Part shown: one piece after another, positions 9,777-50,723 of the stretch
How positions within the stretch are numbered: position 1 is the first letter of the stretch
Layout: each line of letters starts with the position of its first letter
Source: Pseudocercospora fijiensis CIRAD86
Taxonomy: Eukaryota > Ascomycota > Dothideomycetes > Mycosphaerellales > Mycosphaerellaceae
Reading direction: 5' to 3'
Assembly: GCF_000340215.1 (NCBI RefSeq)
Contig: NW_006921538.1
Coordinates: forward strand, 682,001 to 746,000
Length of the DNA: 64,000 bases
Notes under the pieces: generated by a model
The model's database searches: none
Seen by the model: the letters and a program-made list of their open reading frames with translations, nothing else
What the model was told of the DNA's origin: nothing
Position numbers and translations under genes: made by a program

Positions 9777-11467
9777 TTCTAAAGGCCGCGCCCTCGTAGC
9801 CTGTCTATATTCCAATCTCGACCTCTATTGCTACTAACTTAGCAAGTCTAATAAGCTGCTTAGCCGCGCTAAATTAAATACTTAACTACCTAATTATATA
9901 ACTATATTAAACCTTACCTCTAATACAATACAATGTCTAACTCTAACTGCGCTATTCTTGTATATAATAAAGTAATATAGTACTATAAGAATTAAGGACT
10001 ATCGACTAATTATAATACGAGTACACCTTCCCTACTATAATAGGTAGGTATACGGGGTATTGTAGTACTGCCCCCGTTCTAAGTAATGTCGTACCGAGTT
10101 CTCTACGTCTACTCTTAAAAGACCTAGAAATGTCCGCTTCCGAGGGTTGTCTGCTTCCGAGGGTTATTATTCTTATTATTACGAGGACTATTATTTACTG
10201 TCGTAGTTTTACTAGCCCTAATTAGTTAGGTTTAGCAGCCTTTAATTGTCAATCTTATCTTATCTTTTAAAAAACACAGCTCGTCTAGTTTCTATAAGTA
10301 AAGGCTATTATAAGTGTAGTAGTAGAGGTTCGTTTCGCTTAAAGGGTCGGAAAGATCGAGGAGTAACCTATTGTCCGCAAGATCGACCCCGGCTAGCTTA
10401 GCTCTATAGTTTTTGCTCTTAGTTAGTTAGTCTATTAAGCTACTTAATCTTTTAGGCGGCTTAAAGTTTTAATTAAAGTTTTAATTAACCCCTTAGTACC
10501 TTAGGCTCGTAGTATAGGTAAGGTTATATCTATAGGCGTAGTAACAATAGCAAGTAATGTTAATAATAGCGGCGCTAGCCGTCTTAGCGCTAACTTTACC
10601 TTACTTCTAATTTCCTTCTTTAACTAACAACAACTCGGCAATACTATTACTAATATAGCTATATCCTTTCTTTCTTAAATAGCAATATACTCCGCAACAC
10701 CGTTACTAATATAGCCGCGCTAGCCGCGCCGTCGTTATTATTATTATTACTATCCGCGCGCTATCCCCGCCGACCGTCTAGGCCCCGAGATCTTAATAGA
10801 ATAAGAGAGGGCGCTAAGAGGAGGGTCTTATAGAGTGCGCTAGTAAAGAGGTAGTTTCCTAGAGGAGTAGCGAATAGTTAACGCGTTATAGCGCGCTTAT
10901 TAACACTCGGTGCGCGTTCGCTATAGTAGTATAGTCTTATTGTCCTAGTTTACCGGCCCCTAATTAGTTAGCTAATAGCACCCTAGGGGTAGCATTATTC
11001 CTAGGCGACATTATAGGCCCTTAGCCTTCTTCTTATTCTTTACACTAGTCTAATATTTATCTAATAACTTAGTTATGTCTTTAAAAGAGGCTTTAGCTTC
11101 CTACGAGTCCTATTTAGGTAAATAGCCTTACTATCTTAGGAGGTATTCCTTCTTGCCTTGCCTAGTCCGGTGCTTTAGAATACGTTCTATAGACTACAGC
11201 TCTTCCCTATCGGCTAAGACTTCTTCTAACTTAGTAGGCGCTTTATCGCCTTCGCGCTAGTAATATAGTTTAAGGAGGGATACGTAGAAGGTATTATAAA
11301 TAGTGTAATAGGGTAGAAGCTATAACTAATAGGCCTATACGGAGGAGCCCTTAACTTCTCGAATACGGAATAGGCTAATATACCTTAGTGCGAGCTTAGG
11401 CCTTGTTTTACTATCGGGTAATAGGTGCTTACAAATACGGAGGTTCTTAGTGCTTAATATAACTATA
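9777..11467 (-). pseudogene. chromovirus V: polyprotein C-terminus with chromodomain, and 3' UTR
   Basis: Next to the LTR lies the polypurine tract (minus strand AGAAGGGAAGCG). The following kilobase matches the 3' non-coding regions of W (24571-24831, 34798-35770) and A (42750-43916). The chromodomain lies near 11060-11200 on the minus strand, matching the better preserved copy in A. Integrase C-terminal sequence continues to 11467, where hAT Y1 interrupts it. Chromodomains bring integrase to methylated-H3K9 chromatin in this retroelement class. Confidence 0.75.
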
Positions 11468-11684
11468 TAGACCCCGTAGTGGTTCGGTTTCTAAACTACC
11501 AAACGTATATAGTTTGGTTTCTTAGCGGCGAACTAGCTCCCTAGTTCCGGTTTAGTTTTTTCGAACTATATAGATTCCTAGTTTAAACTAGAGACTGTAT
11601 TAGTTTTACTATAAGGACACTCTTATTCGACTACCGGCTACGATTGCCGGCTATAATAGTAACTCTGTTACATTTACTACGCTC

Positions 11685-11920
11685 TTTTACCGTTGCTAGG
11701 GCGTAGTTGCCGTTACTAGGGCGTAGTTGCCGTTGCTAGGGCGTAGTTTTGCTATAAGGACACTCTTGTTCGACTATCGGCTACGATTGCTAGCTATAAT
11801 AGTTACTAGGTTGTATTTACTACGCTTTATTACCGTTGCTAGGGCGTAGTTGCCGTTGCTAGGGCGTAGTTACCGTTGCTAGGGCGTAGTTGCTATTACC
11901 GGGGCGTAGTTACCGTAGTT
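11685..11920. repeat. left subterminal 20-bp tandem repeats of hAT Y1
   Basis: Units of the form TTGCCGTTGCTAGGGCGTAG are repeated in two clusters (about 11688-11752 and 11833-11912), each preceded by the shared block CTATAAGGACACTCTT. The arrangement is thus a duplicated module of about 145 bp. Repeated subterminal motifs are typical hAT transposase binding sites, so this role is inferred. The mirror copy is in Y2 near 34340-34580. Confidence 0.8.
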
Positions 11921-12086
11921 ACGAAAGCTTACCTATATAACGTTACGTAAGCGGCAATAATTAGGGCTTCGCGATATTCTTATACTTTCAACTTCTTCCT
12001 CTATACCTATACCGATAATAACTACTATACGCTACGCCCCCGCCCCTTTCCCTTATAATAGTAAGAGAGAAGTGCGCCGCGCGCTA

Positions 12087-14375
12087 AATAGAAAATAGAA
12101 CTAAAGACCGCGAGTTTGTTTTACCTAAGCGTCTAACTAAAAAGTATAAGACTAAAGAGGAGTACTCTACGAAGAAGAATTCCGTACGAGACCGCGAGAG
12201 AAAGGAGAAGATAGATAAGGATAAAAGAGCTAAAGATAAGAGAAGAAAGGCGCGAAATAAGGCATTCTATCGATAGCTAGCGCCTATAGAAAAAAGTAAA
12301 GGTTAGAATAAGAAGATAACCTAAAAGAAGGCTAAAAGGAGGAAAGAATTGCGGCTAGTTTTCGAGCGTAAAGTTCTAGTAGCGTAAGTTAATCTAGCTA
12401 GCGGCCGTAGCTAGTAGCTATAGCCGGCAGCTATAGCCGGTAGCTATAGCCGGCATATTTTTCTTTAATACGTTAACTAATAGTATTTAGACCTATAGCC
12501 GCTACCTCTATCGATACGACCGATAGTAACGGAGATATTTAGATAACCGAGAACAATAATACTAGAGTTTAGGATACCGCGATAGAGCTTAATACTACGA
12601 ATAAAGGAACTAAAAAAAGCGAGGAGATACTATACGTCGATCTAGTAATAGGTACAGTCTTAGGGCCTAACGCTATAGACGATAAGCGCTAAGAGTAGAT
12701 CGAGTATAGTTAAAGAGACGAGATACTAGTAAAGGGCTAAGGTATAAGTCCTATTAATCTAGAAAATTATAGTTAAAGCTACTACGAAAAGCTAGCAAGG
12801 ATTAGAATCGAGACTAGTCGTCTTTATATCCTCGATATAGAGTAGAAGTTTCTTTATTAGTATTAGAGCGAAGCCTTTACGTCTATAAAGGTAAAGTAGC
12901 TTACGATTAATGCGATTAGGGCTAGGTATCTAGGGACGGCAGAAGTGTTACTATAGGAGGAAGGGGTATAGGTAATTATTCTATACTCGGTATATATAGC
13001 CGGCGTTCGTAGCCGGTAGATACTAATAGTTAAATAGAAAGCGTTTCTCGAAGGCAGAGTACTACTGCTATATAAAATCTTTACTAAGGCAGAGAGGGCT
13101 TATATCCGGAATCTAAGCTACTAGTAGGATAGGTTAGCGTTAGAATTCTCTAAATCTCTATATAAGCCTCCGAAGGATTACCTATTTTAGCGATACGGCT
13201 TTATCTCGACTACTCCGTAGGTACCTGAAGAAGCTCGAGCGCTCTTTAAGGTCTTTACTAAGAAGCGGAAGGAGTTCGAGGATTAGGATTAGTTAATAGA
13301 GCTATTAGTTAGTCTTAGGTTTCGTAGTTAGACTCGGCCTAAGTATTTGCTTATCGAGTGTCTTATACCGAAAGAGGATAGATTAAGACTAAAAACGAGC
13401 TTAGATTCGTTAGGTATAGTAGCTCGGTTCCGTTAGTAGGAGAGAGCCGCCGTATAGAAGGCAAAATTCAGGTAGTTAGGGTAGCTAGGAAAGAAATTCT
13501 AGTAGTTAGGCTAGCTAGGGTAGCTAGGAAAAAAAATCTAGTAGTTAGGTAGCTAGGAAATAAAAAAAAAGGTAGCTAGCTATTTACTACCTAGCTATTC
13601 CTAACGATACGATACTATAAAAGAAAGGGTGTTTCCCTATAGCTACTAGTATATATCTACTACTCCTAAGTCCTTACCTTACTATACGAAACCTTAAAAC
13701 ATACCGACCGATATTGTATATATACTAGGCGCTATACTAGGAAGGGTAACAACGAGACGATAGTCGAAACAGTCTAGTATACGAGCGAGATTGCGATAAC
13801 GTCGAGAGGAGGTCGTATACTTACCTTCGAGCCTATCGAGTCCTAGACGACGATTAGGGCTAGATTCATCCTCTCCGAATCCTAGTAGTAGGAATTTATT
13901 ATAGGGTACTACTACCTAGTCCTTACCTTTACGGAGTCTAAGTAGAAGGTTATTCGGAGATATAAGAATATCGAGTATTAACCCGGAAATCTTCGAAAAG
14001 GCTAGCTAGGCGTATCTTTAGAAACCCGAGTATATAGAGCAGTTTAATTAATAGGTCTATAAGATATAGTTCCCTTTATACTTACGTTTAAAGGAGTGTA
14101 AACTCCGGAAGTACTCGATACGATAGGGGAGTAAGGAGCGAACGGATATATTCTAGAAGTTCTTTATAGAGGGGGCATTATACCGTTATACGACTTCTCG
14201 ACTTAAAGGTTAACTAGTAATTGTCTACAACTTCTACGGTTTAATCTTGAAATACCCGAAACTAGGGGATAGGAACTTATCGCCTATAAACTATCTCTAT
14301 TCTAAACGGTATCGGGAATCTTAAGGAGAGAGGAGAGTTAATATAAATATAGCGTTCTAGAAAGAGGTACGTCTT
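12087..14375 (+). pseudogene. hAT Y1: coding region upstream of the transposase, no recognised domain
   Basis: Three consecutive stretches have coding character when RIP stops are read through. (a) About 12087-12400: a lysine/arginine-rich frame containing LTKKYKTKEEYSTKKNSV and RDRERKEKIDKDKRAKDKRR, likely nuclear. (b) About 12480-13470: a frame with an apparent intron near 12991-13032 (GTATAT...ACTAATAG) that contains GCCGG repeats. (c) About 13640-14375, containing YLRLKECKLRKYSIR and LVIVYNFYGLILKYPKLGDR. They could be 5' exons of the transposase, where hAT proteins usually have a BED zinc finger that I cannot see here, or separate genes. Stops are almost all TAG/TAA, as expected from CAG, CAA and TGG. 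The mirror copy is in Y2 at about 31890-34178. Confidence 0.6.
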
Positions 14376-14381
14376 CTAAAA

Positions 14382-14506
14382 TACCGGCTATAGCTACCGG
14401 CTATAGCTGCCGGCTATAGCTACCGGCTATAGCTACCGGCTATAGCTACTAGCTATAGATTCCGGCTATAGATTCCGGCTATAGATTCCGGCTACTTGAA
14501 TTAACC
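14382..14506. repeat. CCGGCTATAG tandem array inside hAT Y1
   Basis: About nine units of 12-13 bp (CCGGCTATAGCTA and variants) lie between two coding stretches, probably in an intron. The same motif occurs in smaller arrays near 12417, 13004, 15484, 16886, 17898, 18945, 19190, 19757, 20378 and 21234, always between coding segments, and at mirrored sites in Y2. Confidence 0.85.
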
Positions 14507-14529
14507 GTAGAGGTCTAGCTAATTATTAT

Positions 14530-16883
14530 AGGCTACGCTTAAGGAAGCTCTAGGATTAAAGGCTACCGATTTCTCTCCCGAAGACTTTAAGCAACTAGCA
14601 AACGAAATGCTAGCTACAAACGGTCTTCCGGAAGACTTTTATAAAAGGGAGTCTATATAGAAGATATATCTATATCTTATAAACTACCCTCCCCTATTTC
14701 TCGGCGCGATAACCTAGCGTATTATATTCGAAAAGAATAAAGAGGCTACGTTAGACGATATTCGGGAGATCCTCCGTAATACTCGCCGAGTAGCTATTAC
14801 TATCGATAGCTAGTTAAGCCGGACTATAAGAGCCTCCTTCCTCTCGATTATACTATACTTTATTAATTCGGATTAGAAACTCTAGGAACTTATAATCGGA
14901 TTCCCTAAAATTCTAGGTTCCTATACTAGTAAGGATATAGCGAAGCTTGTCTATACGGTAATAGATAGGGTTAGCGTAATAACGAAACTAATCTCGATTA
15001 CTACGGATAACGCTAGTAATAATCGAATATTGTATAAGGCGTTATATATACAATTTACTCGCATATATCTTTAAAATTACTAATTATATCGATAGGGTCG
15101 AGTATATAGAAGAGATTATAAGGTCTATAATCTAGCTTAATCTTCCGAATATTAAGCTCGCTACGATTCCGGATACGTACGATAATACGTACGACGATAA
15201 CGATAAAGAGGAGCCTAGTAATAGCCCTAGCCCTATTAAATCGGAGCCGACGTCGTTACTAGTTATATCCTTATAGAAGTTTCCCTACCTCGCTTATATA
15301 GTTCGAATCGCGATCCGAGCCCTCTTTAAAACGCTTAAAAATTGCACTATTAAACGACGACTAATAGAAGATCCTAGATAAGGATAAAGCAAAGTCGAAA
15401 GTCGAGAAACTCGTTATAGTAATAAGATAGGATAAGGTAGAGAGCCTCGCTCTCGTTTTATATAAGGTATAACTTTTGTCCGTAGCCGGCACCTATAGCC
15501 GGCAACCTAGTATAGTTCTAACTCTTTTTCTCTAGCTTCGTCGTCTAGCAATATATACGAACTCGAGCTTATAGAGATATAACCGATTCGAGGCTATTTA
15601 AAAGAACCTAATCGAGCGCCCTAAAACCGATACCTAGAATATCGTATAGAATAAGCGATAGCAAAAGCGGCCTCCTTAGTACCTACTCCGTTTTACCTAA
15701 GACGTTAAGACCCGGTTCGATTCGACTTTCTATATAGTTATAAGGGGATATACTTTACGGACCGCTCTCGAGATCTATTAGAGTTCCGAGGGTATTAAGT
15801 AGCTCGGCCTTACCGCCGCCGAATAGCGCTAAGTAGAGTATCTCGTTAATATTAGTAAGCATTACGCGAAGGTTACTACTACGATTAGAAGAACCCGAGG
15901 ACCGACGATCTACCTTATCTTTATATACTATAACTAGCTCTTTAACGAGCTCGAGGAAACCGTAGCTAAGCTAGCTAAGAAGAGCGTTCTCTAGAAAGTA
16001 GCTATAACGAAAGCTATAGACAGCTCCTATACTAAGTTGTATAAATATTATAGTACTACCTTTAAGTCGTTCGGGGATATCTATAGCGTTACGTACTTAC
16101 TTAACCTAGTAGAAAAGGATATATACTAGTAGAGGCCGGAATAGAAGGTAGACGAGGTATAGCCGAAGCATTACTAGACTATTCTAGAAAAGATATTCTA
16201 CGAGCGTCGGAAAGAAACTAGTCTAAATACAGCTCTTATAAAGAAAAAGAAGGTTTAGAGGGCTCCGATATTATACCTATTTTATAGGTAGGAAGTAGAG
16301 GTAGAAGAGGAAGCAACTACTAAAGGGAATAAAGAAGAGTTCGATCTCTATCGGCGCGCGAGTAAGTATAAACCCGTAGGCTTAGAAAGAGGGCTAATAA
16401 TCTCTAGATCTTACCGGTCTTCTAGACGAATTCGGAGACGATATTCTCGCTATATAGTAGCGGTTAGAGCCTAAGTTTCTAACGATAGCGTCGGTCGCTC
16501 GGGACGTCCTCGCTATTCCGAGCGTAGGTATAGGCTATAAAAGGTCTTTTAGTATCGCTCGTTACTAGGGCCGCTTTAATCGAATATACTCGCCTACTAC
16601 CTTCGAATCTATTATAGTATTCCGATACTATCTCCTCTACTAGAATCGCTAAGGTAGGTTATTAAAGATTATACTAAAGGAGTTAATTGAGGAATTAGAA
16701 AACCTTAAGATCGAAGAAACCTAAAAGCGCGAAGAGAATACGAAATTTAGTCTAAGCGAAACCCTAATTAGCGATAACGAAGAGGAGGAGGTCGGAGGTA
16801 GAAGGCGATACCGGGTCGAGAAGCGGAAACGTATATAGGCTTAGAGTAGCTTTAAGGAGACGAAGCGTTTACGTATAAGGTAA
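14530..16883 (+). pseudogene. hAT superfamily transposase, RIP-inactivated
   Basis: The RNase-H-like hAT core is plain when stops are read through. First catalytic Asp block: VAITIDS*LSRTIRASFLS (about 14786-14845; canonical hAT LxxDGWTSxN...SF), then a helix through PKILGSYTSKDIAKLV. Second Asp block: LISITTDNASNNRILY (about 14988-15035). The insertion region ends with VEYLVNISKHYAKVTTT and GPTIYLIFIYYN*LF (about 15835-15945), then SSYTKLYKYYSTTFKSFGDI. The C-terminal dimerisation domain reads LEPKFLTIASVARDVLAIPS followed by SFSIARY (about 16460-16560; family ...DYLAIPASSVPSERVFS). A charged tail ends near 16883. One intron near 15480-15530 contains GCCGG repeats. Cut-and-paste transposition with 8-bp duplications is the family activity. 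Confidence 0.9.
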
Positions 16884-17051
16884 TATAGCCGGCGTATATA
16901 GCCGGTATATATCCGAAATATGTTTCGAATTCCTAGGACCTAAATAGACTAGTTGCTATAGTAACCGACCCCGCTTACCTACAGACTATTTCTAATTCTC
17001 TATTCGCTCTTCCTCTTCTTCTTCCCTTTCCCTATATTCTTAAAGATAAAT

Positions 17052-17860
17052 ATACCTTAAGGATTCGGCTCTTCGGGCCTTCCTAAGCCGGCTACCTCCC
17101 CTTCCTTAAGCTACTATCCTTTATTCGAATCTAACGATAACCTACTAAGGCGGTTTAATAGAAGACTATTTATTCTAGAAGGTAAGAAGCATTAATATCT
17201 TCTTACGATTATATACTTATTAATTTTCTAGGTCCTACCGATATACCCTCGTCGCTTAAACGCGTAGATAAATATCTTTAGAGGCTAAAGGGTAAGGGTA
17301 AAGTAAGCTAAGTATAGGGAGACTATAGCGAGAACGAGATATCGGAAGAGTAAGGCTCTCCGTAATATATACGAAGGAAGGGGGTTCCTCGGAAAATAGT
17401 ACTAAAAAATAAGAAGGCTTTAAGTAGATAGGAGAAGGCTAAAAAAAGTAGGCGGACGAAGACTATCGCGAAGAAAAGTTATCTTTCTATTAAAAAAAAG
17501 GGAATAAGGTAGGACTTAACGATAAAGAAGCGGCGCTTTAAACTAGGTACTATTGCCCTTCGCTAGATCCGGCTTTTCTAAAATAAAAGAGGGACCGAGC
17601 TTTTAATCCCTAAGACTCCCTTCTAGCGACTCGTCCGAGAAATTATATTAGATTTTCGGTCTAGTATACGATTTACGGCTAAGGCGATTAGTACTCTTTA
17701 GGAAGCTACGGAGGCATTTCTCGTAACTAAGCTTAAGCTTTTAAACCTCCTTACTATCTATACGAAGCGGGTTACTCTTTAAAATAAAGATATATAGCTT
17801 CTAGCTAAAATTCGGCGTCGGTTTATAGCGGATTAGTTAGAAATTGTATTTAGTCGTTAA
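17052..17860 (+). pseudogene. divergent histone H3 variant carried by hAT Y1 (RIP-inactivated)
   Basis: The C-terminal about 100 residues form a histone H3 fold: RFKLGTIALR*IRLF* (alpha-N), GTELLIPKTPF*RLVREI (alpha 1), FTAKAISTL*EATEAFLV (alpha 2), LLTIYTKRVTL*NKDI*LL (loop 2 and alpha 3). Stops sit where H3 has Gln: YQ, PFQRL, LQEA and DIQL. Alpha-N carries two extra residues before TELLI. The N-terminal part, about 150 residues, is Lys/Arg/Ser-rich and has none of the canonical H3 tail motifs, recalling centromeric CENP-A variants, but loop 1 is not lengthened, so CENP-A status is not shown. Inferred start: ATA (was ATG) at 17052. Inferred intron: 17182-17231 (GTAAGA...TTCTAG), which restores the frame. 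H3 histones wrap DNA in nucleosomes. Mirror copy in Y2 at 28405-29213. Confidence 0.88.
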
Positions 17861-17894
17861 ATAAACCTAGGAGGAGGCCTATTTTCGTATTCTT

Positions 17895-19475
17895 TTACCG
17901 GCTATAGGTACCGGCTATATTTCTAATTTTATCTCCGCGCCGTCCCTAAATCTAAGATACGAAGTAGAAACCTAGCGCTCTATATTTACCCGGCTATTAT
18001 AGAGACGAGCTATATTTAGATTAGTTTCTTCGTATATCGCGACCTAGCGGGTAGTAAGCGAAAGGGCGATAGAACGTTTATAATACGTCTCTATTTAGAC
18101 CTAAAATATAAAGGTCCTAAGAAGCCCTAGTATCCTAACTATAAGGAGATTCTTTAGTATTAGCACTTTAATCCTCTATACTACGAGGCAGATAGTAAGC
18201 CTACGAGAGAGAAACTTTAACGAGAAATTCTCTATAATACGTAGCGCTATTATATAGCTATAGATACGTACTAAGTCCGGCAACTCGAAGAAGATTTAAG
18301 ATAGCGACCGAGTAGGAGAATAATAGTATATTAGTAGAGTCGAGGTCTTATAAGCGAAGTATAAGATAATATAGGCTCTTAGTCGTATAGAGTAACGTAC
18401 TATATAAATAACTAAGCGTACTACTCTTATTTACTTACGACCTATATCCTAGGATACTCTACTCGTACTTTTTATACTCTTTTCTAATACTTTACCTATA
18501 ATCGCTCCGCGATAACCGAGTAAATATAAGCTATAGGATTTCCGCTCGGTACCTTAGCCTTCGAGATACGGCGGAGTTAATTCTCTATAATACGTAGCGC
18601 TATTATATAGCTATAGATACGTACTAAGTCCGGTAACTCGAAGAAGATTTGAGATAGCGACCGAGTAGGAGAATAATAGTATATTAGTAGAGTCGAGGTC
18701 TTATAAGTAAAGTACGAGATAATGTAGGCTCTTAGTCGTATAGAGTAACGTACTATATAAATAACTAGGCGTGCTACTCTTATTCACTTACGACCTATAT
18801 CCTAGGATACTATTCTCGTACTTTTTATACTCTTTTCTAATACCTTACCTATAAGCGCTCCGCGACAACCGAGTAAATATAAGCTATAGGGTTTCCGCTC
18901 GGTACCTTAGCCTCCGAGATAGGGCGGAGTTGAATTTAGAGCGATAGCCGGCACTCGTAGCCGGTATATAGAGACGGTAGTAGGCCTTTTCCTACTAAAT
19001 AACTAGCTTGTTTAGTATAGCCTACCTGATATTTCTTATATTTACTAGCAATAGGCCTAGGTTACTTATAAGATTACTATAGCTAGTAAAGGCATTACTA
19101 AAGAATATCTATACTATAGTAGGATACTATTATTACGCCGGCTATTTATTAAAAGGAGGCTTTCGCCTATTACTATACCGGCTATATATACCGGCTATAT
19201 TTCAAAGTCTGCCGTACCTGCCTTTTTTAGCCGTACCTACCTTTTTTAGCCGTACCTACCTTCTTTCCTTACTCTAACGTTACTATAATATAGGCTTATA
19301 CGAAGCTTACTCTATTACCTAGCGATACCGCGATACTATCTCTCTCGCTATATTTAACCTTCGTATCGATACCTATACCTCTACGCTCTATATCTACTAC
19401 CTCCGTAATACCCTCGCTCCGCGCGCGCCTTCGTATACCTTCGTAACGCACTTTTTTCCTTAATTCGACGACTTT
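17895..19475. other. hAT Y1 spacer between the two histone genes
   Basis: Holds GCCGG-type repeats near 17898 and 18945, a tandem duplication (18225-18935), three copies of a 19-bp GCCGTACCTACCTTTTTTA unit (about 19208-19262), and the presumed promoter of the H3-like gene. Around 17960-18230 a plus-strand frame looks weakly coding (SFFVYRDLAGSKRKGDRTF) but no family is assigned. The block near 17935-18015 is similar, inverted, to the end of each duplicated unit, so a nested element or diverged inverted repeat is possible. Confidence 0.55.
18225..18935. repeat. direct tandem duplication of about 365 bp inside hAT Y1
   Basis: Two adjacent copies, each running from TTCTCTATAATACGTAGCGC to CGGCGGAGTT, meet near 18588. 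They differ mainly by transitions. The same duplication is in Y2 (about 27330-28045), so it predates the split of the two copies. Confidence 0.85.
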
Positions 19476-19479
19476 TATA

Positions 19480-20290
19480 ATACCGAGTCTACTTAACTAA
19501 GTTACGACGCCTCGTAAGAAGGGACCTACTACTTCTATAGGTCGCAATAAGACCGGAAATAATAGAACGAGTATAGTATATTAACGTAAGAGGGCTGCTA
19601 CTACTACCGCTAGCTCCGGTGCTAGAAAGGGCGTCGCGAGTAAGGCTCCGTATAAGACAATAGCGGGCAAGGCTCTATATAAGACGACAACTAGCGCTTC
19701 TACTACTAGAAGTAATCGTACGAAGCGTCGATAGCGCCTAAGAAGTAAGTCCTATTTATAGCCGGTAGCGTAGCCGGCAGCGTAGCCGGTAGCGTAGCCG
19801 GCATTCTTACTATCTTTTTACTAATCCTTCTTTAGCTATAGCCCTCCGTTAGATTCGGTAGTATTAGAAGAGTTTTAAGCTCCTAATCCGTAAAGCTCCT
19901 TTCCGACGACTTATTCGCGAAATTGCCTAGGTTTATAGAACGGACCTTCGCTTCTAAGCCTCCGCGATAGACGCCCTTTAAGAGGCTATAGAAGCCTACC
20001 TAGTTCGTATCTTCGAATATATATTTCTCTCCTACCTCTTTTCGGACTATACTAATACTATTTTAGCGGTTAACCTTATAGCTATCTACGCGAAGCGTAT
20101 AACGATTATAGATAAGGATTTCAAAGTACTCGATTAGATTCTAAAAGGCTAGAATATCTATATTCGAGATAGTGCTAGATAGGATAGATATTCTAGTAGG
20201 AAGGATGTTCGTAGTATCGTCTATAAGCTTTTCTATATACGAAATAAGCCGCGGTTATACGGCGCTATATACCGCGCTCTAAATACTCTC
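19480..20290 (+). pseudogene. histone H3-like gene carried by hAT Y1 (RIP-inactivated, two introns)
   Basis: The H3 histone fold is clear: TIALR*IR*Y*KSFKLLIRK (alpha-N), APFRRLIREIA*VYRTDLRF (alpha 1 to loop 1), ASAIDAL*EAIEAYLVRIFE (alpha 2), NLIAIYAKRITIIDKDFKVL (loop 2 and alpha 3). Stops at Y*K, IA*, RF* and L*E match glutamines conserved in canonical H3. The N-terminal tail contains ARKGVASKAP, resembling the H3 K9-S10 region ARKSTGGKAP, after an extension of about 60 residues. Introns: 19745-19835 (GTAAGT, TACTAAT branch, TTCTTTAG), which holds four GCCGG repeat units; and about 20019-20066, with branch TACTAATAC and a donor GT mutated to AT. The C-terminus seems longer than in H3. Start ATA (was ATG) at 19480. 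Mirror copy in Y2 at about 25975-26785. Confidence 0.9.
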
Positions 20291-20474
20291 TAAGTATATA
20301 TATATAGTATAGTATACTTTATTAGCCGTACGGAATAGAAGTCTTTAAAAATCCTATTAGTACTAAGGAGTTAAAAGGCCGGCTACGCTACCGGCTACGC
20401 TGCCGGCTACGCTACTAGGTCTTATAAAGAACTAAAAGAAGATAGAAATTCTAGTTAATTTGTATTAGTTTAGA

Positions 20475-21002
20475 TTTTTAGAAAAAGAAAACAAGGAAAA
20501 AAGGAAGAAGATTAAAGAACCTAATACTTATAGTTATAGGCATTATCCCTATTCTCTAGACTATATTATATACCTGCTTTCGCAACTCTACCTAATACTC
20601 CTACTAAATATCCTTATACTCTACCTACTAGAAATTCAACTAGGTACCTAGACCTATAGCTGCCTCTATATCTTTTACTATCTTCTATAGGTTAAAGGAA
20701 TCCTCTATAGTAGCCTCTACTTCCTTATATAATACGAAGTTACTACCTACCCTATCCTTAATATCTACTAAATAACCTAGAGTTCTAAAGAACGAACTAG
20801 TATTCGGCCGTAGTATAGCGAGTAACTAGTAGAACGCCCTATAGAGCTGCCTTATAGCTGTTTCGTATATAGTACCGATATCGAGGGAGGAGCTATCTTA
20901 GTACTTAATATTAGAGTATAGTTTAGTAGGAAAGTGCTAGAACTTCTTATAGAGAGCTTCGACGGAAATCGATAAGTTCTGCCTAGATCTAGATAAAGAC
21001 AT
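20475..21002 (-). pseudogene. hAT Y1 cargo gene of unknown function
   Basis: A minus-strand frame of about 175 codons starts with ATG at 21000-21002 (MSLSRSR...). Its only interruptions are TAG codons, as expected for RIP of CAG/TGG. Visible parts: LSISVEALRKKF, DSSSLDIGTIYEIAI, LLAILRPNASSFFRTLGYL, DIKDRVGSNFVLYKEVEATI. It looks soluble and helical, without signal peptide or obvious membrane segment. No family was recognised. It is read towards the histone genes and starts about 430 bp from the right transposon end. The mirror copy at 25263-25790 in Y2 keeps the same ATG and frame, which supports a real gene. Confidence 0.7.
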
Positions 21003-21444
21003 TCTACTAAGCAGTTAGGGAATTAAACCGTAAACGAAAGGATAAAATTTATACCTAAGGAGTACAGTTTCCGAACTAAACTATAATGCCTTATATATAT
21101 ATATATATATGCTTTTGATTAGTTAGTGCCTTTAGCTAATTGTCTATAGATTTAAGGTTATATAAGTACCTTTATACAACTACGTAGCCTAAGTAGGATT
21201 CGAAAATTCTATAAGTACTAAGGACTAAAAATGCCGGCTACGCTGCCGGCTATACTACTAAGTCTTACAAAGGGCTTGCTTAAAGCTACGTATACATTCG
21301 TATACTTCTTAAAAACCGATAAATTATATAGTTCGAACTAGCTACTTATATAGTTGCTTAGCAAACCAACCTAAACTAAACTAGAGTTTCGGCTTAGTAA
21401 ACTAAACTAAACCAACCCGAACCACTGCGGGGTCTATAACTATA

Positions 21445-24831: not shown

Positions 24832-25262
24832 TAGACCCCGCAGTGGTTCGGGTTGGTTTAGTTTGGTTTGCTAAGCCGAAACTCTAGTTTGGTTTAGGTT
24901 AGTTTGCTAAGCAACTATATAAGTAGCTAGTTCGAACTATATAATTTATCGGTTTTTAAGAAGTGTACGAATGTATACGTAGCTTCAAGCAAGCCCTTTA
25001 TAAGACTTAGCAGTATAGCCGGCAGCGTAGCCGGCATTTTTAGTCCTTAGTACTTATAGAATTTTCGAATCCTACTTAGGCTACGTAGTTATATAAAGGT
25101 ACTTATATAACCTTAAATCTATAGACAATTAGCTAAGGGCACTAACTAATTAAAAGCATATATATATATATATAAGGTATTATAGTTTAGTTCGGAAACT
25201 GTACTCCTTAGGTATAAATTTCATCCTTTCGTTTACGGTTTAATTCCCTAACTGCTTAGTAG

Positions 25263-25790
25263 AATGTCTTTATCTAGATCTAGGTAGAACTTATCGATTT
25301 CCGTCGAAGCTCTCCGTAAGAAGTTCTAGTACTTTCCTACTAAACTATACTCTAATATTAAGTACTAGGATAGCTCCTCCCTCGATATCGGTACTATATA
25401 CGAAATAGCTATAAGGTAGCTCTATAGGGCGTTCTACTAGTTACTCGCTATACTACGGCCGAATGCTAGTTCGTTCTTTAGAACTCTAGGTTATTTAGTA
25501 GATATTAAGGATAGGGTAGGTAGTAACTTCGTATTATATAAGGAAGTAGAGGCTACTATAGAGGAGTCCTTTAACCTATAGAAGATAGTAAAAGATATAG
25601 AGGCAGCTATAGGTCTAGGTACCTAGTTGAATTTCTAGTAGGTAGAGTATAAGGATATTTAGTAGGAGTATTAGGTAGAGTTGCGAAAGCAGATATATAA
25701 TATAGTCTAGAGAATAGGGATAATGCCTATAACTATAAGTATTAGGTTCTTTAATCTTCTTCCTTTTTTCCTTGTTTTCTTTTTCTAAAA
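25263..25790 (+). pseudogene. hAT Y2 copy of the unknown cargo gene
   Basis: Plus-strand counterpart of Y1 20475-21002, with the same ATG (25263), the same frame and only TAG interruptions. It ends in a Phe/Leu-rich stretch near 25770-25790, followed by a GCCGG array. That the frame is kept in both copies argues for a real protein of about 175 residues. Function unknown. Confidence 0.7.
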
Positions 25791-25974
25791 ATCTAAACTA
25801 ATACAAATTAACTAGAATATCTATCTTCTTTTAGTTCTTTATAAGACCTAGTAGCGTAGCCGGTAGCGTAGCCGGTAGCGTAGCCGGCCTTTTAACTCCT
25901 TAGTACTAACGGGATTTTCGAAGACTTCTATTCCGTATAGCTAATAAAGTATACTATACTATATATATATGCTT

Positions 25975-26785
25975 AGAGAGTATTTAGAGCGCGGTATATA
26001 GCGCCGTATAACCGCGGCTTATTTCGTATATAGAAAAGCTTATAGACGATACTACGAATATCCTTCCTACTAGAATATCTATCCTACCTAGTACTATCTT
26101 AAATATAGACATTCTAGCCTTTTAGAATCTAATCGAGTACTTTAAAATCCTTATCTATAATCGTTATACGCTTCGCGTAGATAGCTATAAGGTTAACCGC
26201 TAAAATAGTATTAGTATAGTCCGAAAAGAGGTAGGAGAGAAATATATATTCGAAGATACGAACTAGATAGGCTTCTATAGCCTCTTAAAGGGCGTCTATC
26301 GCGGAGGCTTAGAAGCGAAGGTCCGTTCTATAAACCTAGGCAATTTCGCGAATAAGTCGTCGGAAAGGAGCTTTACGGATTAGGAGCTTAGAACTCTTCT
26401 AATACTACCGAATCTAACGGAGGGCTACGGCTAAAGAAGGATTAGTAAAAAGATAGTAAGAATGCCGGCTACGCTACCGGCTACGCTACCGGCTACGCTA
26501 CCGGCTATAAATAGGACTTACTTCCTAGGCGCTATCGACGCTTCGTACGATTGCTACTAGTAGTAGAAGCGCTAGTTATCGTCTTACGTAGAGCCTTGCC
26601 CGCCGTTGTCTTACGCGGAGCCTTACTCGCGACGCCCTTTCTAGTACCGGAGCTAGCGGTAGTAGTAGCAGCCCTCTTACGTTAATATACTATACTCGTT
26701 CTATTATTTCCGGTCTTATTACGACCCGTAGAAGCAGTAGGTCCCTTCTTACGAAGCGTCGTAACTTAGTTAAGTAGACTCGGTA
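25975..26785 (-). pseudogene. hAT Y2 copy of the H3-like histone gene
   Basis: Minus-strand counterpart of Y1 19480-20290. The alpha-N block reads KSSKLLIRKAPFRRLIREI here (KSFK in Y1), one step closer to canonical KSTELLIRK, showing independent RIP hits. The intron with GCCGG units (about 26430-26520) and the tail with ARKGVASKAP-like sequence are present. Confidence 0.88.
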
Positions 26786-27329
26786 TTATAAAAGTCGTCG
26801 AATTAAGGAAAAAAGTGTATTACGAAGGTATACGAAGGCGCGCGCGGAGCGAGGGTATTACGGAGGTAATAGATATAGAGCGTAGAGGTATAGGTATCGA
26901 TACGAAGGTTAAATATAGCGAGAGAGGTAGTATCGCGGTATCGCTAGGCAATAGAGTAAGCTTCGCGTAAGCCTATATTATAGTAACGTTAGAGTAAAGA
27001 AAGAAGGTAGGTACGGCTAAAAAAGGCAGGTACGGCTAAAAAAGGTAGGTACGGTAGACTTTGAAATATAGGTAGTATATATAGCCGGTATAGTAATAGG
27101 CGAAAGCCTCCTTTTAATAAATAGCCGGCGTAATAATAGTATCCTACTATAGTATAGATATTCTTTAGTAATGCCTTTACTAGCTATAGTAATCTTATAA
27201 GTAACCTAGGCCTATTACTAGTAAATATAAGAAATATTAGGTAGGCTATACTAAATAAGCTAGTTATTTAGCAAGAAAAGGCCTACTACCGTCTCTATAT
27301 ACCGGCTACGAGTGCCGGCTATCGCTCTA

Positions 27330-28045
27330 AATTCAACTCCGCCCTATCTCGGAGGCTAAGGTATCGAGCGGAAACCCTATAGCTTATATTTACTCGGTTA
27401 TCGCGGAGCGCTTATAGGTAAAGTATTAGAAAAGAGTATAAAAAGTACGAGAATAGTATCCTAGGATATAGGTCGTAAGTGAATAAGAGTAGCACGCCTA
27501 GTTATTTATATAGTACGTTACTCTATACGACTAAGAGCCTATATTATCTCGTACTTTACTTATAAGACCTCGACTCTACTAATATACTATTATTCTCCTA
27601 CTCGGTCGCTATCTCAAATCTTCTTCGAGTTACCGGACTTAGTACGTATCTATAGCTATATAATAGCGCTACGTATTATAGAGAATTAACTCCGCCGTAT
27701 CTCGAAGGCTAAGGTACCGAGCGGAAATCCTATAGCTTATATTTACTCGGTTATCGCGGAGCGATTATAGGTAAAGTATTAGAAAAGAGTATAAAAAGTA
27801 CGAGTAGAGTATCCTAGGATATAGGTCGTAAGTAAATAAGAGTAGTACGCCTAGTTATTTATATAGTACGTTACTCTATACGACTAAGAGCCTATATTAT
27901 CTTATACTTCGCTTATAAGACCTCGACTCTACTAATATACTATTATTCTCCTACTCGGTCGCTATCTTAAATCTTCTTCGAGTTGCCGGACTTAGTACGT
28001 ATCTATAGCTATATAATAGCGCTACGTATTATAGAGAATTTCTCG
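27330..28045. repeat. hAT Y2 copy of the 365-bp tandem duplication
   Basis: Two adjacent units with the same junction as in Y1 (18225-18935), in reverse orientation. Confidence 0.85.
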
Positions 28046-28404
28046 TTAAAGTTTCTCTCTCGTAGGCTTACTATCTACCTCGTAGTATAGAGGATCAAAG
28101 TACTAATGCTAAAGAATCTCCTTATAGTTAGGATACTAGGGCTCCTTAGGACCTTTGTATTTTAGGTCTAAATAGAGACGTATTATAAACGTTCTATCGC
28201 CCTTTCGCTTACTACCCGCTAGGTCGCGATATACGAAGAAACTAATCTAAATATAGCTTATCTCTGTAATAGCCGGGTAAATATAGAGCGCTAGGTTTCT
28301 ACTTCGTACCTTAGATTTAGGGACGGCGCGGAGATAAAATTAGAAATATAGCCGGTACCTATAGCCGGTAAAAGGATGCGAAAATAGGCCTCCTCCTAGA
28401 TTAA

Positions 28405-29213
28405 TCTAACGACTAAATACAATTTCTAACTAATCCGCTATAAACCGACGCCGAATTTTAGCTAAAAGCTATATATCTTTATTTTAAAGAGTAACCCGCT
28501 TCGTATAGATAGTAAGGAGGTTTAAAAGCTTAAGCTCGGTTACGAGAAATGCCTCCGTAGCTTCCTAAAGAGTACTAATCGCTTTAGCCGTAAATCGTAT
28601 ACTAGACCGAAAATCTAATATAATTTCTCGGACGAGTCGCTAGAAGGGAGTCTTAAGGATTAAAAGCTCGGTCCCTCTTTTGTTTTAGAAAAGCCGGATC
28701 TAGCGAAGGGTAATAGTACCTAGTTTAAAGCGCCGCTTCTTTATCGTCGAGTCCTACCTTATTCCCTTTTTTTTAATAGAAAGATAACTTTTCTTCGCGA
28801 TAGTCTTCGTCCGCCTACTTTTTTTAGCTTTCTCCTATCTACCTAAAGCCTTCTTATTTTTCGGTACTATTTTCCGAGGAACCCCCTTCCTTTATATATA
28901 CTATAGAGAGCCTTACTCTTTCGATATCTCGTTCTCGCTATAGTCTCCCTATACTTAGCTTGCTTTATCTTTACCCTTTAGCCTCTAAAGATATTTATCT
29001 ACGCGTTTAGGCGACGAAGGTATATCGGTAGGACCTAGAAAATTAATAAGTATATAATCGTAAGGAGACATTAATGCTTCTTGCCTTCTAGAATAAATAG
29101 TCTTCTATTAAACCGCCTTAATAGGTTATCGTTAGATTCGAATAAAGGATAGTAGCTTAAGGAAGGGGAGGTAGCTAGCTTAGGAAGGCCCGAAGAGCCG
29201 AATCCTTAAGGTA
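28405..29213 (-). pseudogene. hAT Y2 copy of the divergent histone H3 variant
   Basis: Minus-strand counterpart of Y1 17052-17860. The histone-fold block (about 28440-28740) reads as in Y1, including GTELLI, PF*RLVREI and EATEAFLV. One residue of the alpha-N/alpha-1 region differs (LKTPF against PKTPF), so the copies were mutated independently. Confidence 0.86.
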
Positions 29214-29381
29214 TATTTATCTTTAAGAATATAGGGAAAGGGAAGAAGGAGAGGAAGAGCGAATAGAGAATTAGAAATAGTCCGTAGGTAAGCGGGGTCG
29301 GTTACTATAGCAACTAGTCTATTTAGGTCCTAGGAATTCGAAATACATTTCGGATATATACCGGCTATATATACCGGCTAT

Positions 29382-31735
29382 ATTACTTTATATATAAACG
29401 CTTCGTCTCTTTAAAGCTACTCTAAGCCTATATACGTTTCCGCTTCTCGACCCGGTATCGCCTTCTACCTCCGCCCTCCTCCTCTTCGTTATCGCTAATT
29501 AGGGTTTCGCTTAGACTAAATTTCGTATTCTCTTCGCGCTTCTAGGTTTCTTCGATCTTAAGGTTTTCTAATTCCTCGATTAACTCCTTTAGTATAATCT
29601 TTAGTAACCTACCTTAGCGATTCTAGTAGAGGAGATAGTATCGGAATACTATAATAGATTCGAAGGTAGTAGGCGAGTATATTCGATTAAAGCGGCCCTA
29701 GTAACGAGCGATACTAAAAGACCTCTTATAGCCTATACCTACGCTCGGGATAGCGAGGACGTCCCGAGCGACCGACGCTATCGTTAGAAACTTAGGCTCT
29801 AACCGCTACTATATAGCGAGAATATCGTCTCCGAATTCGTCTAGAAGACCGGTAAGATTTAGAGATTATTATCCCTCTTTCTAAGCCTACGGGTTTATAC
29901 TTACTCGCGCGCCGATAGAGATCGAACTCTTCTTTATTCCCTTTAGTAGTTACTTCCTCTTCTACCTCTACTTCCTACCTACGAAATAGATATAATATCG
30001 GAGCCCTCTAAACCTTCTTTTTCTTTATAGGAGCTATATTTAGACTAGTTTCTTTCCGACGCTCGTAGAATATCTTTTCTAGAATAGTCTAGTAATACTT
30101 CGGCTATACCTCGTCCGCCTTCTATTCCGGCCTCTACTAGTATATATCCTTTTCTACCGGGTTAAGCAAGTACGTAACGCTATAGATATCCCCGAACGAC
30201 TTAAAGGTAGTACTATAATATTTATATAACTTAGTATAGGAGCTGTCTATAGCTTTCGTTATAGCTACTTTCTAGGGAACGCTCTTCTTAGCTAGCTTAG
30301 CTACGGTTTCCTCGAGCTCGTTAAAGAGCTAGTTATAGTACGTAAAGATAAGGTAGATCGTCGGTCCTCGGGTTCTTCTAATCGTAGTAGTAACCTTCGC
30401 GTAATACTTACTAATATCGACGAGATACTCTGCTTAGCGCTATTCGGCGGCGGTAAGGCCGAGCTACTCAATACCCTCGGAACTCTAATAGATCTCGAGA
30501 GCGGTACGTAAAGTATATCCCTTCGTAACTATATAGAAAGTCGAATCGAACCGGGTCTTAACGTCTTAGGTAAAACGGAGTAGGCGCTAAAGAGGCCGCT
30601 TTTGCTATCGCTTATTCTATACGATATTCTAGGTATCGGTTTTAGGGCGCTCGATTAGGTTCTTTTAAATAGCCTCGAATCGGTTATATCTCTATAAGCT
30701 CGAGTTCGTATATATTACTAGACGACGAAGCTAGAGAAAAAGAGTTAGAACTATACTAGGTTGCCGGCTATAGGTACCGGCTACGGACAAAAGTTATACC
30801 TTATATAAAACGAGAGCGAGGCTCTCTACCTTATCCTATCTTATTACTATAACGAGTTTCTCGACTTTCGACTTTGCTTTATCCTTATCTAGGATCTTCT
30901 ATTAGTCGTCGTTTAATAGTACAATTTTAAGCGTCTTAAAGAGGGCTCGGATCGCGATTTAAACTATATAAGCGAGGTAGGGAAACTTCTATAGGGATGC
31001 GACTAGTAACGACGTCGGCTCCGATTTAATAGGGCTAGGGCTATTACTAGGCTCCTCTTTATCGTTATCGTCGTACGTATTATCGTACGTATCCGGAATC
31101 GTAGCGAGCTTAATATTCGGAAGATTAAGCTAGATTATAGACCTTGTAATCTCCTCTACGTACTCGACCCTATCGATATAATTAGTAATTTTAAAGATAT
31201 ATACGAGTAAATTGTATATACAACGCCTTATATAATGTTCGATTATTACTAGCATTGTCCGTAGTAATCGAGATTAGTTTCGTTATTACGCTAACCCTAT
31301 CTATTGCCGTATAGATAAGCTTCGCTATATCCTTACTAGTATAGGAACCTAGAATTTCAGGGAATCCGATTATAAGTTCCTAGAGTTTCTAATCCGAATT
31401 AATAAAGTATAGTATAATCGAGAGGAAGGAGGCTCTTATAGTCCGGCTTAACTAGCTATCGATAGTAATAGCTACTTGGCGAGTATTACGGAGGATCTCC
31501 CGAATATCGTCTAACGTAGCCTCTTTATTCTTTTCAAATATAATACGCTAGGTTGTCGCGCCGAGAAATAGGGGAGGGTAGTTTATAAGATATAGGTATA
31601 TCTTCTATATAGACTCCCTTTCGTAGAAGTCTTCCGGAAGACTGTTTATAGCTAGTATTTCGTTTACTAGTTACTTAAAGTCTTCGGGGGAGAAATCGGT
31701 AGCCTTTAATCCTAGAGCTTCCTTAAGCGTAGCCT
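29382..31735 (-). pseudogene. hAT Y2 transposase, RIP-inactivated
   Basis: Mirror of Y1 14530-16883. The C-terminal dimerisation block lies at about 29700-29850, the second Asp block (ITTDNASNN) at about 31230-31280 and the first Asp block at about 31420-31480. Confidence 0.86.
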
Positions 31736-31889
31736 ATAATAATTAGCTAGACCTCTACGGTTGATTTAAGTAGCCGGAATCTATAGCCGGAATCTATAGC
31801 CGGAATCTGTAGCCGGCAGCTATAGCCGGTAGCTATAGCCGGCAGCTATAGCCGGTAGCTATAGCCGGTAGCTATAGCCGGCATTTTAG

Positions 31890-34178: not shown

Positions 34179-34339
34179 TAGCGCGCGGCGCGCTTCTCTC
34201 TTACTATTATAAAGGAAAGAGGCAGGGGCGTAGCGTATAGTAGTTATTATCGGTATAGGTATAGAGGAAGAAGTTAAAAGTATAAGAATATCGCGAAGCC
34301 CTAATTGTTGCCGCCTACGTAACGTTATATAGGTAAGCT

Positions 34340-34580
34340 TTCGCAACTACAGTAACTACGCCCCGGTAATAGCAACTACGCCCTAGTAACGGCAACTACG
34401 CCCTAGCAACGGTAACTACGCCCTAGTAACGGTAATAAAGCGTAGTAAATACAACCTAGTAACTATTATAGCCGGCAATCGTAGCCGGCAGTCGAATAAG
34501 AGTGTCCTTATAGCAAAACTACGCCCTAGCAACAGCAACTACGCCCTAGCAACGGTAACTACGCCCTAGCAACGGCAAAA
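34340..34580. repeat. subterminal 20-bp tandem repeats of hAT Y2
   Basis: Mirror of the Y1 array, with units such as CTACGCCCTAGCAACGGTAA. Copy numbers differ slightly from Y1. Confidence 0.8.
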
Positions 34581-34797
34581 GAGCGTAGTAAATATAATAG
34601 AGTTACTATTATAGCCGGCAATCGTAGCTAGCAGTCGAATAAGAGTGTCCTTATAGTAAAACTAATATAGTCTCTAGTTTAAACTAGGAATCTATATAGT
34701 TCGAAAAACCCAAACCGGAACTAGGGAGCTAGTTCGCCGCTAAGAAACCAAACTATATACGTTTAGTAGTTCGGAAACCGAACTACTACGGGGTCTA

Positions 34798-47100: not shown

Positions 47101-48233
47101 TTCTAGTCTTTATTAGAGTTAAACAGCTATCTAAGTTTTAGGCGTATCTCGGAAATCTATATAGAATTAGTCTTAGCTAGAAGGTTATCCTCGAGGGTCT
47201 TTAAATAGGCCTTAAATAAGCGGGCCGATTAATTAGTCTTTTATTTAGCTCGAAGATACAGGTCCTAAGTATGTTGTTGCCTTAGTATAGGGTTTCTAAG
47301 GGTATCTAGTATAATAGTTTTATAGGTCTGCTACTAAACAGCGGTCTAATCGTTAAGGGAGTCGAAATAGTTATCCTATATACGCTTTAGGTCGCTATTA
47401 ATGTACTATATAGCGTAGACAACTAAGGAATAGTTATCTAGTAGCGCTCTTAGTACATTGCGCTAGTTAAGTTTATAGTTACGAATGTAGTCGTTGTACT
47501 GCTTTCGACTAGAGCTATTAAATACGGTACAGTCCTTAAGTTTAGCATCTTTCTTTTAGATAGGTAGTAAAGAAGGTCCTACTATTAGTTTAGTAGTAGT
47601 TATTAGGGCTTCCTAAAGGCGACGGAGCTCGAGGAGGTTATCCTTTAGCTATTATTCTTAACGTAGGGTAGTAAGCCTGTTTTAAGTAGCTTCTTAAAGT
47701 CTCCCTAATAGTTGAGGGCTAAAGGCTAGTTAGCTATATCGTCGATTGACAATGTTATTAAGAATATCGTTAACAGGCAATTCTAGATTATTACCTAGAA
47801 TTATAGGTTCTTCTTTAGCAGGCCCTCTAGTAGGCTCTTTAGTAGGAGGCACTTTAGTAGCTACTTTAGCGGGAACTGTGCTACTAGCGTTGTTATTGCT
47901 AGCGCTACTAGCGGCGCCGCGGTTGTTATTGCTTCGTAATAAGCCGGCTATTATAAGGGGTAATACTAATAATATATTATAGGCCCCTAAGATACGGATA
48001 TAGCGGAATTAGTAGATATCGGTCTAGTATAATTAACTCGGTGTAATAGGCCGTATAGAAGGCCTTGCTTAATAATTAGTACGGTTGTTTTAATAGAATA
48101 GTACGTGTAGGTCCCGTTCTTTAGGCGCAATATAGTTAAATCGATAGTTTTCGTAGCTATACCGCTAAAAGCTTGAAATAAGGACTATCTAGCTACTACC
48201 CTTAAAGGGTAGATCGAATACTATATAAGAAGG
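44118..48233 (-). pseudogene. chromovirus W: gag, protease, RT, RNase H and start of integrase
   Basis: On the minus strand: gag about 48200-46740 with knuckle CFNCDSTSYLLG*C near 46815-46860, protease near 46560-46600, reverse transcriptase including an open stretch 46051-45677 (YYRICIRKGNK at its end), RNase H about 45200-44880, integrase zinc region to 44118. The rest of the integrase is at 34798-37050. Plus-strand open frames over gag (47746-47982) are antisense. Confidence 0.85.
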
Positions 48234-48420: not shown

Positions 48421-48425
48421 TAGGT

Positions 48426-50718: not shown

Positions 50719-50723
50719 TTCTA

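What the first reader, a model, noticed from the sequence alone, without database searches (positions are those of the whole stretch)
11468..21436. hAT transposon carrying two histone H3-fold genes as cargo
Between its 8-bp target duplications and inverted termini, this 10-kb hAT element holds a hAT transposase, a divergent H3 (17052-17860), an H3-like gene (19480-20290) and an unknown gene. Both histone genes lie inside both copies of the element at mirrored positions, so they travel with it. A transposon encoding its own nucleosome components is not something I know from the literature. Possible roles (inference): marking its own chromatin, influencing RIP or heterochromatin, biasing insertion to particular chromatin, or regulating its transposase.
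Basis: partly seen in the sequence, partly recalled or inferred. Interest (0 to 1): 0.96.

Follow-up and report, generated by a model that had tools for sequence, protein, structure and literature searches.

The report
Jumping gene carrying two histones
This is a fungal jumping gene that carries two histone H3 genes, a kind of element already described in print in 2013 and 2019; the copies examined here are crippled by stop codons, and the element likely once made its own histone variants.

Summary
Window 11468-21436 is a 9,969-bp element with 20-bp inverted ends, a matching 8-bp target duplication (TAACTATA) and two H3-type histone genes, both present in 22 of 22 full-length copies examined. 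It is not new. Dhillon et al. 2019 (PMC6710886) describe what is almost certainly this element in the banana pathogen Pseudocercospora fijiensis: 784 H3-like copies in 471 hAT elements, inactivated by RIP (repeat-induced point mutation). Manning et al. 2013 (PMC3538342) describe a similar case in Pyrenophora.

Four things go beyond what I read there. (1) The published '16-AA insertion' in the second H3 is a predicted 48-nt intron, and a second predicted intron lies one codon from a host H3 intron, so capture of a spliced transcript alone does not explain this gene. (2) Three diverged subfamilies keep both H3 genes, which argues for working cargo; selection tests are weak and mixed. (3) GCCGG-type arrays sit at 14 fixed places, several inside predicted introns. 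(4) Miniature elements of about 370 bp with the same ends keep such an array. Both genes are H3-type, not centromeric H3. I built no de-RIP consensus, because the genus contains a listed pathogen (listing recalled).

The parts
11460..11467 (.). target site duplication, left copy (TAACTATA)
   Evidence: identical to 21437-21444
21437..21444 (.). target site duplication, right copy (TAACTATA)
11468..11487 (+). left terminal inverted repeat, 20 bp
21417..21436 (-). right terminal inverted repeat, 20 bp
12062..13457 (+). gene 1, function unknown (bounds approximate); predicted intron 12384-12483, perhaps another around 12999
   Evidence: translation; GTAAGT and TAG in 22 of 22 copies; no Pfam hit above cut-off; no relative at E<=0.01
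14510..16880 (+). transposase exons examined (5' limit not fixed; predicted introns 14367-14509 and 15467-15535)
   Evidence: sub-threshold Dimer_Tnp_hAT near the C-terminal end and sub-threshold TNP-like_RNaseH_N; splice signals
17052..17860 (+).
   Evidence: PF00125 E 3.1e-21 with X at stops; 10 of 10 rows of three subfamilies match; the 5' intron starts GT in 12 and GC in 10 of 22 copies, and GC to GT there could itself be RIP, so it is doubtful
19480..19744 (+). H3-2 exon 1: basic H3-like tail with tandem GKAPRKTTA-type units, number varying between copies
   Evidence: no Pfam hit alone
19745..19835 (+). H3-2 intron A (predicted), 79-103 nt in the 22 A copies, 69-116 nt in six B and C loci; holds a GCCGG array
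   Evidence: GTAAGT in 22 of 22 A copies; lengths in A; whole pattern in 6 of 7 B and C loci, GGAAGTAAGT in 7 of 7
19836..20018 (+). H3-2 exon 2: first part of the H3 fold
   Evidence: PF00125 E 3.1e-17; PDB H3 matches
20019..20066 (+). H3-2 intron B (predicted), 48 nt: the published '16-AA insertion'
   Evidence: A copies: first two bases GT in 10 of 22, GTATGT in 6, TAG at the end in 22. B and C: a 48-nt block with a CTAAT-type site and TAG in 6 of 7 loci (L036 fetch ends before it), but starting AT, not GT, in all 6
20067..20293 (+). H3-2 exon 3: rest of the fold and a C-terminal extension
18226..18931 (+). 353-bp tandem duplication; two units in 15 of 22 elements, one in 7
11633..21252 (.). 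GCCGG-type arrays; 14 aligned places in the family near 11633, 11776 (not in Y1 itself), 12423, 12999, 14383, 15485, 16888, 17087 (single), 17897, 18947, 19137, 19760, 20377, 21233
   Evidence: 12 places in 22 of 22 and 2 in 21 of 22 copies (places in fewer than 11 copies not listed); TAGCCGGY 75 in the window against 8.75 expected, 66 of 75 in Y1 and Y2
24832..34797 (-). Y2, second copy, inverted, both H3 genes present

Best explanation
This is a many-copy hAT-type DNA transposon whose 22 full-length copies examined all carry two H3-type histone genes now riddled with stop codons, and it likely once expressed them as its own histone variants. Shown here: the ends, target duplications, H3 identity, RIP pattern, and both H3 genes (some cut short) in three diverged subfamilies. 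Predicted from sequence: the introns, including two in the second H3 gene. Inferred: one host H3 copy was captured, duplicated inside the element and kept because the variants, once built into nucleosomes, would have helped the element's own genes stay expressed or its ends stay accessible; RIP then destroyed the copies. The GCCGG arrays would be docking or transposition sites (inferred).
For: Both H3 genes in 22 of 22 full-length elements, and found in 5 of 5 subfamily B places and 2 of 2 subfamily C places read (H3-2 breaks off in L035 and runs off the fetched end in L036), at 68-89% DNA identity to the common form A over the H3 pieces compared. H3-1 is 9 nt (C) and 24 nt (B) shorter than in A, and its frame runs from tail through fold in 4 of 5 B and 2 of 2 C loci. 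H3-1 fold: transversion-variable sites at codon positions 1/2/3 are 7/1/6 of 108 each, p 0.045 uncorrected. Intron A signals are kept in A, B and C. Both genes score nearer host H3 than host CenH3 (H3-1: 21 of 21 A and 2 of 2 B rows scored; H3-2 exon 2: 22 of 22 A and 3 of 3 B; C rows, L010 H3-1 and the mis-cut L003 row not scored, nor B rows fetched but not entered). The Pyrenophora H3-like gene sits in a hAT element with an unknown ORF and has ESTs (PMC3538342).
Against: No intact copy, transcript or protein was seen here. H3-2 shows no codon-position constraint (exon 2: 10/7/10 of about 60 sites each), and in three of four comparisons its exons 2 and 3 changed faster than every alignable non-coding stretch compared. 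At four-fold sites H3-1 shows fewer transversions than at positions 1+2 (1/77 against 0.050, A to B; not significant), the opposite of simple purifying selection. The indel-frame test was inconclusive (p 0.26). L038 has a frameshift in H3-1. The 2019 authors describe capture of a transcript and inactivation, and in the parts I read propose no role for the element.
Confidence: 0.52

Rival explanations
1. Passive transduplication: the hAT element captured an H3 transcript by accident, and the copies hitchhiked and were killed by RIP, with no role for the element (close to the published account).
For: PMC6710886 Results and Discussion. Every one of the 22 copies carries in-frame stops in both genes. 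H3-2 shows no detectable codon-position constraint. H3-1 reads without a break across the H3-like part (one copy, L010, is frameshifted).
Against: Both genes found in all three subfamilies, with the H3-1 frame and intron A signals retained. H3-2 has two predicted introns, so it is not simply a spliced transcript.
Confidence: 0.36
2. The H3 genes mainly matter as DNA: their similarity to host H3 would make RIP or small-RNA targeting of the element risky for the host, so the element would use H3 as a shield.
For: The host H3 exons have no stop codons while the element copies do. The 2019 paper reports RIP-like changes in the host gene.
Against: The shield evidently failed: all 22 copies read are mutated. 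DNA identity between copies and host gene is low now (51-55% in the paper). Nothing here tests it.
Confidence: 0.05
3. The H3 genes belong to a separate element nested in the hAT element.
For: None found.
Against: No inner inverted repeat with the element-end sequence among the 25 of 63 pairs shown. Gene order and flanks are shared by subfamilies A, B and C. Both genes lie at like places in 22 of 22 copies.
Confidence: 0.02

Closest known systems
Histone H3-carrying hAT element of Pseudocercospora fijiensis (Dhillon et al. 2019, PMC6710886)
   Same: Full length about 9.5-9.9 kb, 20-bp inverted ends, 8-bp target duplications, one or two H3-like genes, average identity 96.5% among complete elements (96.35% mean here), RIP at CpA, host H3 on scaffold 6 (contig 6 here), 784 H3-like copies (772 first-look candidates here, 150 scored). 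Almost certainly the same element and species (inferred).
   Different: The paper treats the two H3 genes as copies whose lengths differ by a 16-AA insertion and infers capture of an intronless transcript. Here that insertion is a predicted 48-nt intron and H3-2 has a second predicted intron. The main text has no mention of subfamilies or miniature elements (word search; [quoted passage not shown] the GCCGG arrays and the 353-bp duplication are such repeats.
H3L transduplication in Pyrenophora tritici-repentis (Manning et al. 2013, PMC3538342)
   Different: 5.6 kb, one H3 gene, nearly identical copies with ESTs. The 2019 paper found no similarity between the elements' DNA; I could not compare the proteins.
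Host histone H3 and CenH3 genes of the same genome (L029, L030)
   Same: H3-1 and H3-2 align across the H3 fold without the CenH3 loop-1 insertion.
   Different: H3-1 has a 2-residue insertion near the start of the fold and a long N-terminal extension; H3-2 has repeated tail units and a C-terminal extension.

Membership tests
hAT DNA transposon | 8-bp target site duplication | tested here: met
   Identical in 18 of 20 fetched elements and in Y1; differs in L019; not clean in Y2; L010 flank too short to tell
hAT DNA transposon | short terminal inverted repeats | tested here: met
   20 bp, 75+69 genome matches, 0 control
hAT DNA transposon | transposase with hAT C-terminal dimerisation domain | tested here: inconclusive
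   PF05699 15.4-17.4 bits, cut-off 21.4, near the C-terminal end
hAT DNA transposon | DUF659 domain | tested here: inconclusive
   Not among Pfam matches of the broken, X-marked pieces searched, a weak test; reported by PMC6710886 for this element family
P. fijiensis H3-carrying hAT family (2019) | length, inverted ends, 8-bp duplication, two H3-like genes, RIP | tested here: met
Core histone H3 | PF00125 match above the curated cut-off | tested here: met
   76.3 and 63.4 bits against 26.4 with X at stops; 10 of 10 H3-1 rows match
Core histone H3 | H3 rather than CenH3 (no loop-1 insertion, nearer host H3) | tested here: met
   (21/21, 2/2, 22/22, 3/3 rows scored are nearer host H3; C rows not scored); tree puts the four CenH3 rows apart at 100/99, and joins H3-1 with H3-2 only weakly (72/99)
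Core histone H3 | assembles into nucleosomes | not testable with these tools
   needs protein work

The most novel reading that the evidence does not exclude
The element encoded its own pair of H3 variants as an anti-silencing or chromatin-docking kit: variant nucleosomes, with GCCGG arrays spread through introns and spacers as landing sites, kept the transposon open. The kit was retained through three subfamilies and was recruited independently in Pyrenophora, which would make histone capture a repeated strategy of fungal hAT elements.
Probability: 0.18. Interest if true: 0.85.

Novelty: already known. Interest (0 to 1): 0.42.

Why it matters
The core discovery is already in print. What this adds is a testable correction: the second H3 gene has predicted introns, one at nearly the host intron position, so the 'transcript capture' account is incomplete. 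It also gives evidence, absent from the parts of the two papers I read, that both H3 genes outlived the split into three subfamilies, which is what working cargo predicts. If the cargo worked, transposons can carry their own nucleosome proteins.

Tried and rejected
Nested separate element: disfavoured. CenH3 origin: rejected; the rows scored are nearer host H3, and neither gene has the CenH3 loop-1 insertion. Strong purifying selection on both genes: not shown. mis-cut one B row (L003 reduced to five residues), so I rely; the same mis-cut row was left out. Indels in frame by gap counting: inconclusive, because the aligner split gaps. Relatives of gene 1: none among 5,529 candidates at E<=0.01. 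H3-1 relatives: 241 proteins at E<=0.001, 120 listed; those with names are H3 or CenH3 type apart from some called only histone-fold, hypothetical, unnamed or uncharacterised, and none of the 14 sequences I fetched shares the N-terminal extension. A first search at E<=1e-15 was too strict and found none. Most rows of alignment A1 were in a wrong frame; A2 replaced it. The intron B pattern was written too narrowly and matched no B or C locus; one search repeated it. The script stopped with an error after printing the tree, so its identity figures were not obtained. The tree had no H3-2 rows. A four-term literature search found nothing. Not used: structure prediction, fold search, Rfam.
Full report
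WHAT IS THERE. Window 11468-21436 is one copy of a DNA transposon with 20-bp inverted ends and the 8-bp duplication TAACTATA on both sides. A second, inverted copy (Y2) lies at 24832-34797. The end pattern occurs 144 times in the 73.9-Mb genome and never as the reversed control. Twenty further elements, chosen as end pairs about 9.5-10.0 kb apart in the listed part of that output, were fetched. Their target duplications are identical in 18 of 20 and differ from one element to the next, which shows past movement. Mean pairwise identity of the 22 copies is 96.35%. Variable columns are 1,335 two-state transitions, 71 two-state transversions and 23 multi-state, with CpA/TpG the commonest context, as RIP gives. 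Y1 and Y2 are more depleted of CpA/TpG (index 0.14-0.15) than three other copies measured (0.28-0.43).

THE HISTONE GENES. With X at each stop, H3-1 (17234-17860) matches PF00125 at E 3.1e-21 and H3-2 (19838-20293) at E 3.1e-17, both far over the cut-off. The best matches in the PDB are H3 chains. Both genes are in 22 of 22 elements at like places, and all 22 carry in-frame stops in both. The rows scored are nearer the host's own H3 than its CenH3 and lack the CenH3 loop-1 insertion. A 60-column tree puts the four CenH3 rows apart at 100/99 and joins H3-1 with H3-2 only weakly (72/99), so one capture followed by duplication is possible but not shown.

IT IS PUBLISHED. Dhillon et al. 2019 (PMC6710886; I read the abstract, all of Results and all of Discussion, and word-search passages; no supplement) report 784 H3-like copies in 471 hAT elements of P. 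fijiensis, full length about 9.5-9.9 kb, 20-bp inverted ends, 8-bp duplications, one or two H3-like genes per element, inactivated by RIP, with the original H3 on scaffold 6. Here the genome is 73.9 Mb; 772 first-look histone candidates were found, of which 150 were scored and listed, each marked over the cut-off (they include the host H3 on contig 6 and a host CenH3 exon). The host is therefore almost certainly P. fijiensis (inference). Manning et al. 2013 (PMC3538342; passages and part 1 of 2 of section 20) report a hAT element with an H3-like gene in Pyrenophora tritici-repentis. PMC4994206 and PMC8939313 were seen only in search listings.

INTRONS. The published '16-AA insertion' of the second H3 is 48 nt long (20019-20066), and the alignment to H3 chains has a gap of exactly 16 residues there. 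In 10 of 22 A copies it begins GT, in 6 GTATGT; all 22 end TAG, and a TACTAATAC- or GCTAATAC-type branch site precedes it. The copies starting AT fit RIP of TpG. In subfamilies B and C the same 48-nt block with branch-like site and TAG is present in 6 of 7 loci (the L036 fetch ends before it), but all 6 start AT, so the donor site is not seen intact there. A second predicted intron (19745-19835) has GTAAGT in 22 of 22 A copies; the whole pattern is found in 6 of 7 B and C loci and its donor in 7 of 7. It lies three nucleotides from the position of host H3 intron 2 when the Gly-Thr codons are aligned (host exons). No intron is seen in H3-2 exon 1 where host intron 1 would fall, though the tails align loosely. 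So either a host intron was kept and slid, or introns were gained; capture of a spliced transcript alone does not account for H3-2. H3-1 reads without a break across the H3-like part. Its possible upstream intron (17182-17231) starts GT in 12 and GC in 10 of 22 copies, and since GC to GT before A could itself be RIP, I count it as doubtful.

SUBFAMILIES. Besides the common form A, five places (B) and two places (C) carry diverged copies, 68-89% identical to A over the H3 pieces compared. Both genes are found in all seven; H3-2 breaks off in L035 and runs off the fetched end in L036. One place fetched as a candidate (L039) proved to be form A. H3-1 is 9 nt (C) and 24 nt (B) shorter, keeping frame in all but L038.

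SELECTION. Only transversions were used, since RIP makes transitions. Among A, B and C, the H3-1 fold has 7, 1 and 6 variable sites at codon positions 1, 2 and 3 (108 each; p 0.045, uncorrected for five pieces tested). The H3-1 tail (7/4/6), H3-2 exon 1 (10/15/7), exon 2 (10/7/10) and exon 3 (4/4/12) show no significant shortage at position 2 (some B and C pieces there were cut by hand and the exon 1 and 3 ends are rough). H3-2 exons 2 and 3 differ from A at 0.099 and 0.131 per site in B and 0.083 and 0.026 in C, against 0.00-0.08 in the alignable non-coding stretches. Four-fold sites do not exceed positions 1+2 in H3-1. An indel test was inconclusive. The evidence for constraint is thus weak for H3-1 and absent for H3-2. 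The main argument for function is joint retention in three subfamilies and the parallel case in Pyrenophora.

ARRAYS. TAGCCGGY occurs 75 times in the window against 8.75 expected (largest shuffle 17), and 66 of the 75 lie in Y1 and Y2. GCCGG-type motifs form 14 aligned arrays among those present in at least 11 copies: 12 in 22 of 22 and 2 in 21 of 22 copies, mostly with 12- or 13-bp spacing and varying unit number. Several lie in predicted introns (12384-12483, 14367-14509, 15467-15535, 19745-19835), most others between genes or near the ends. Three miniature elements of about 370-390 bp (L031-L033) align to 61-97 bp at each end of the long element, have perfect 8-bp duplications by reading, and keep two or three GCCGGC units. 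A role in transposition or as docking sites is inferred.

OTHER GENES. The transposase C-terminal piece matches the hAT dimerisation domain below its cut-off (15.4-17.4 against 21.4 bits). Gene 1 has no relative found.

LITERATURE. Phrase searches for transposon-encoded histones found nothing, nor did a four-term search. Histone H3 plus hAT transposon plus repeat-induced point mutation gave the two papers above; transduplication plus histone H3 plus hAT plus fungal gave three papers. The library holds open-licence papers only.

VERDICT. Real and striking, but already published. The introns, the subfamilies, the miniature elements and the arrays are the additions. Working cargo is my preferred reading at 0.52, against passive capture at 0.36.

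Noticed in passing
L031 (G000:C7:1817380-1817830), L032, L033: Miniature elements of about 370-390 bp with the same inverted ends, perfect 8-bp duplications by reading, a retained GCCGGC array, and RIP index 0.43-0.78 against 0.28-0.43 in three long copies and 0.14-0.15 in Y1 and Y2.
   Followed up: partly
window 18226-18931: 353-bp tandem duplication: two units in 15 of 22 elements and one in 7, matching the 9.9-10.0 kb and 9.5-9.6 kb size classes.
   Followed up: yes
window 19600-19740 and homologous places: The H3-2 tail has a GKAPRKTTA-type repeat whose unit number varies between copies and subfamilies.
   Followed up: partly
window 46202-50770: Pairs of 150-300 bp direct repeats spaced about 2.2-2.3 kb apart, perhaps another duplicated element.
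   Followed up: no
L030 (G000:C5:605500-608000): Host CenH3 gene with open exons and an apparent intron between RLV and REV in the fold.
   Followed up: partly
L010 H3-1: One full-length copy is 67 nt longer in H3-1 (691 against 624 nt), which shifts the frame.
   Followed up: no
L035 (G000:C17:213500-217000): A subfamily B element breaks off inside H3-2 close to a stretch matching the left end of the long element, perhaps a nested or rearranged copy.
   Followed up: no
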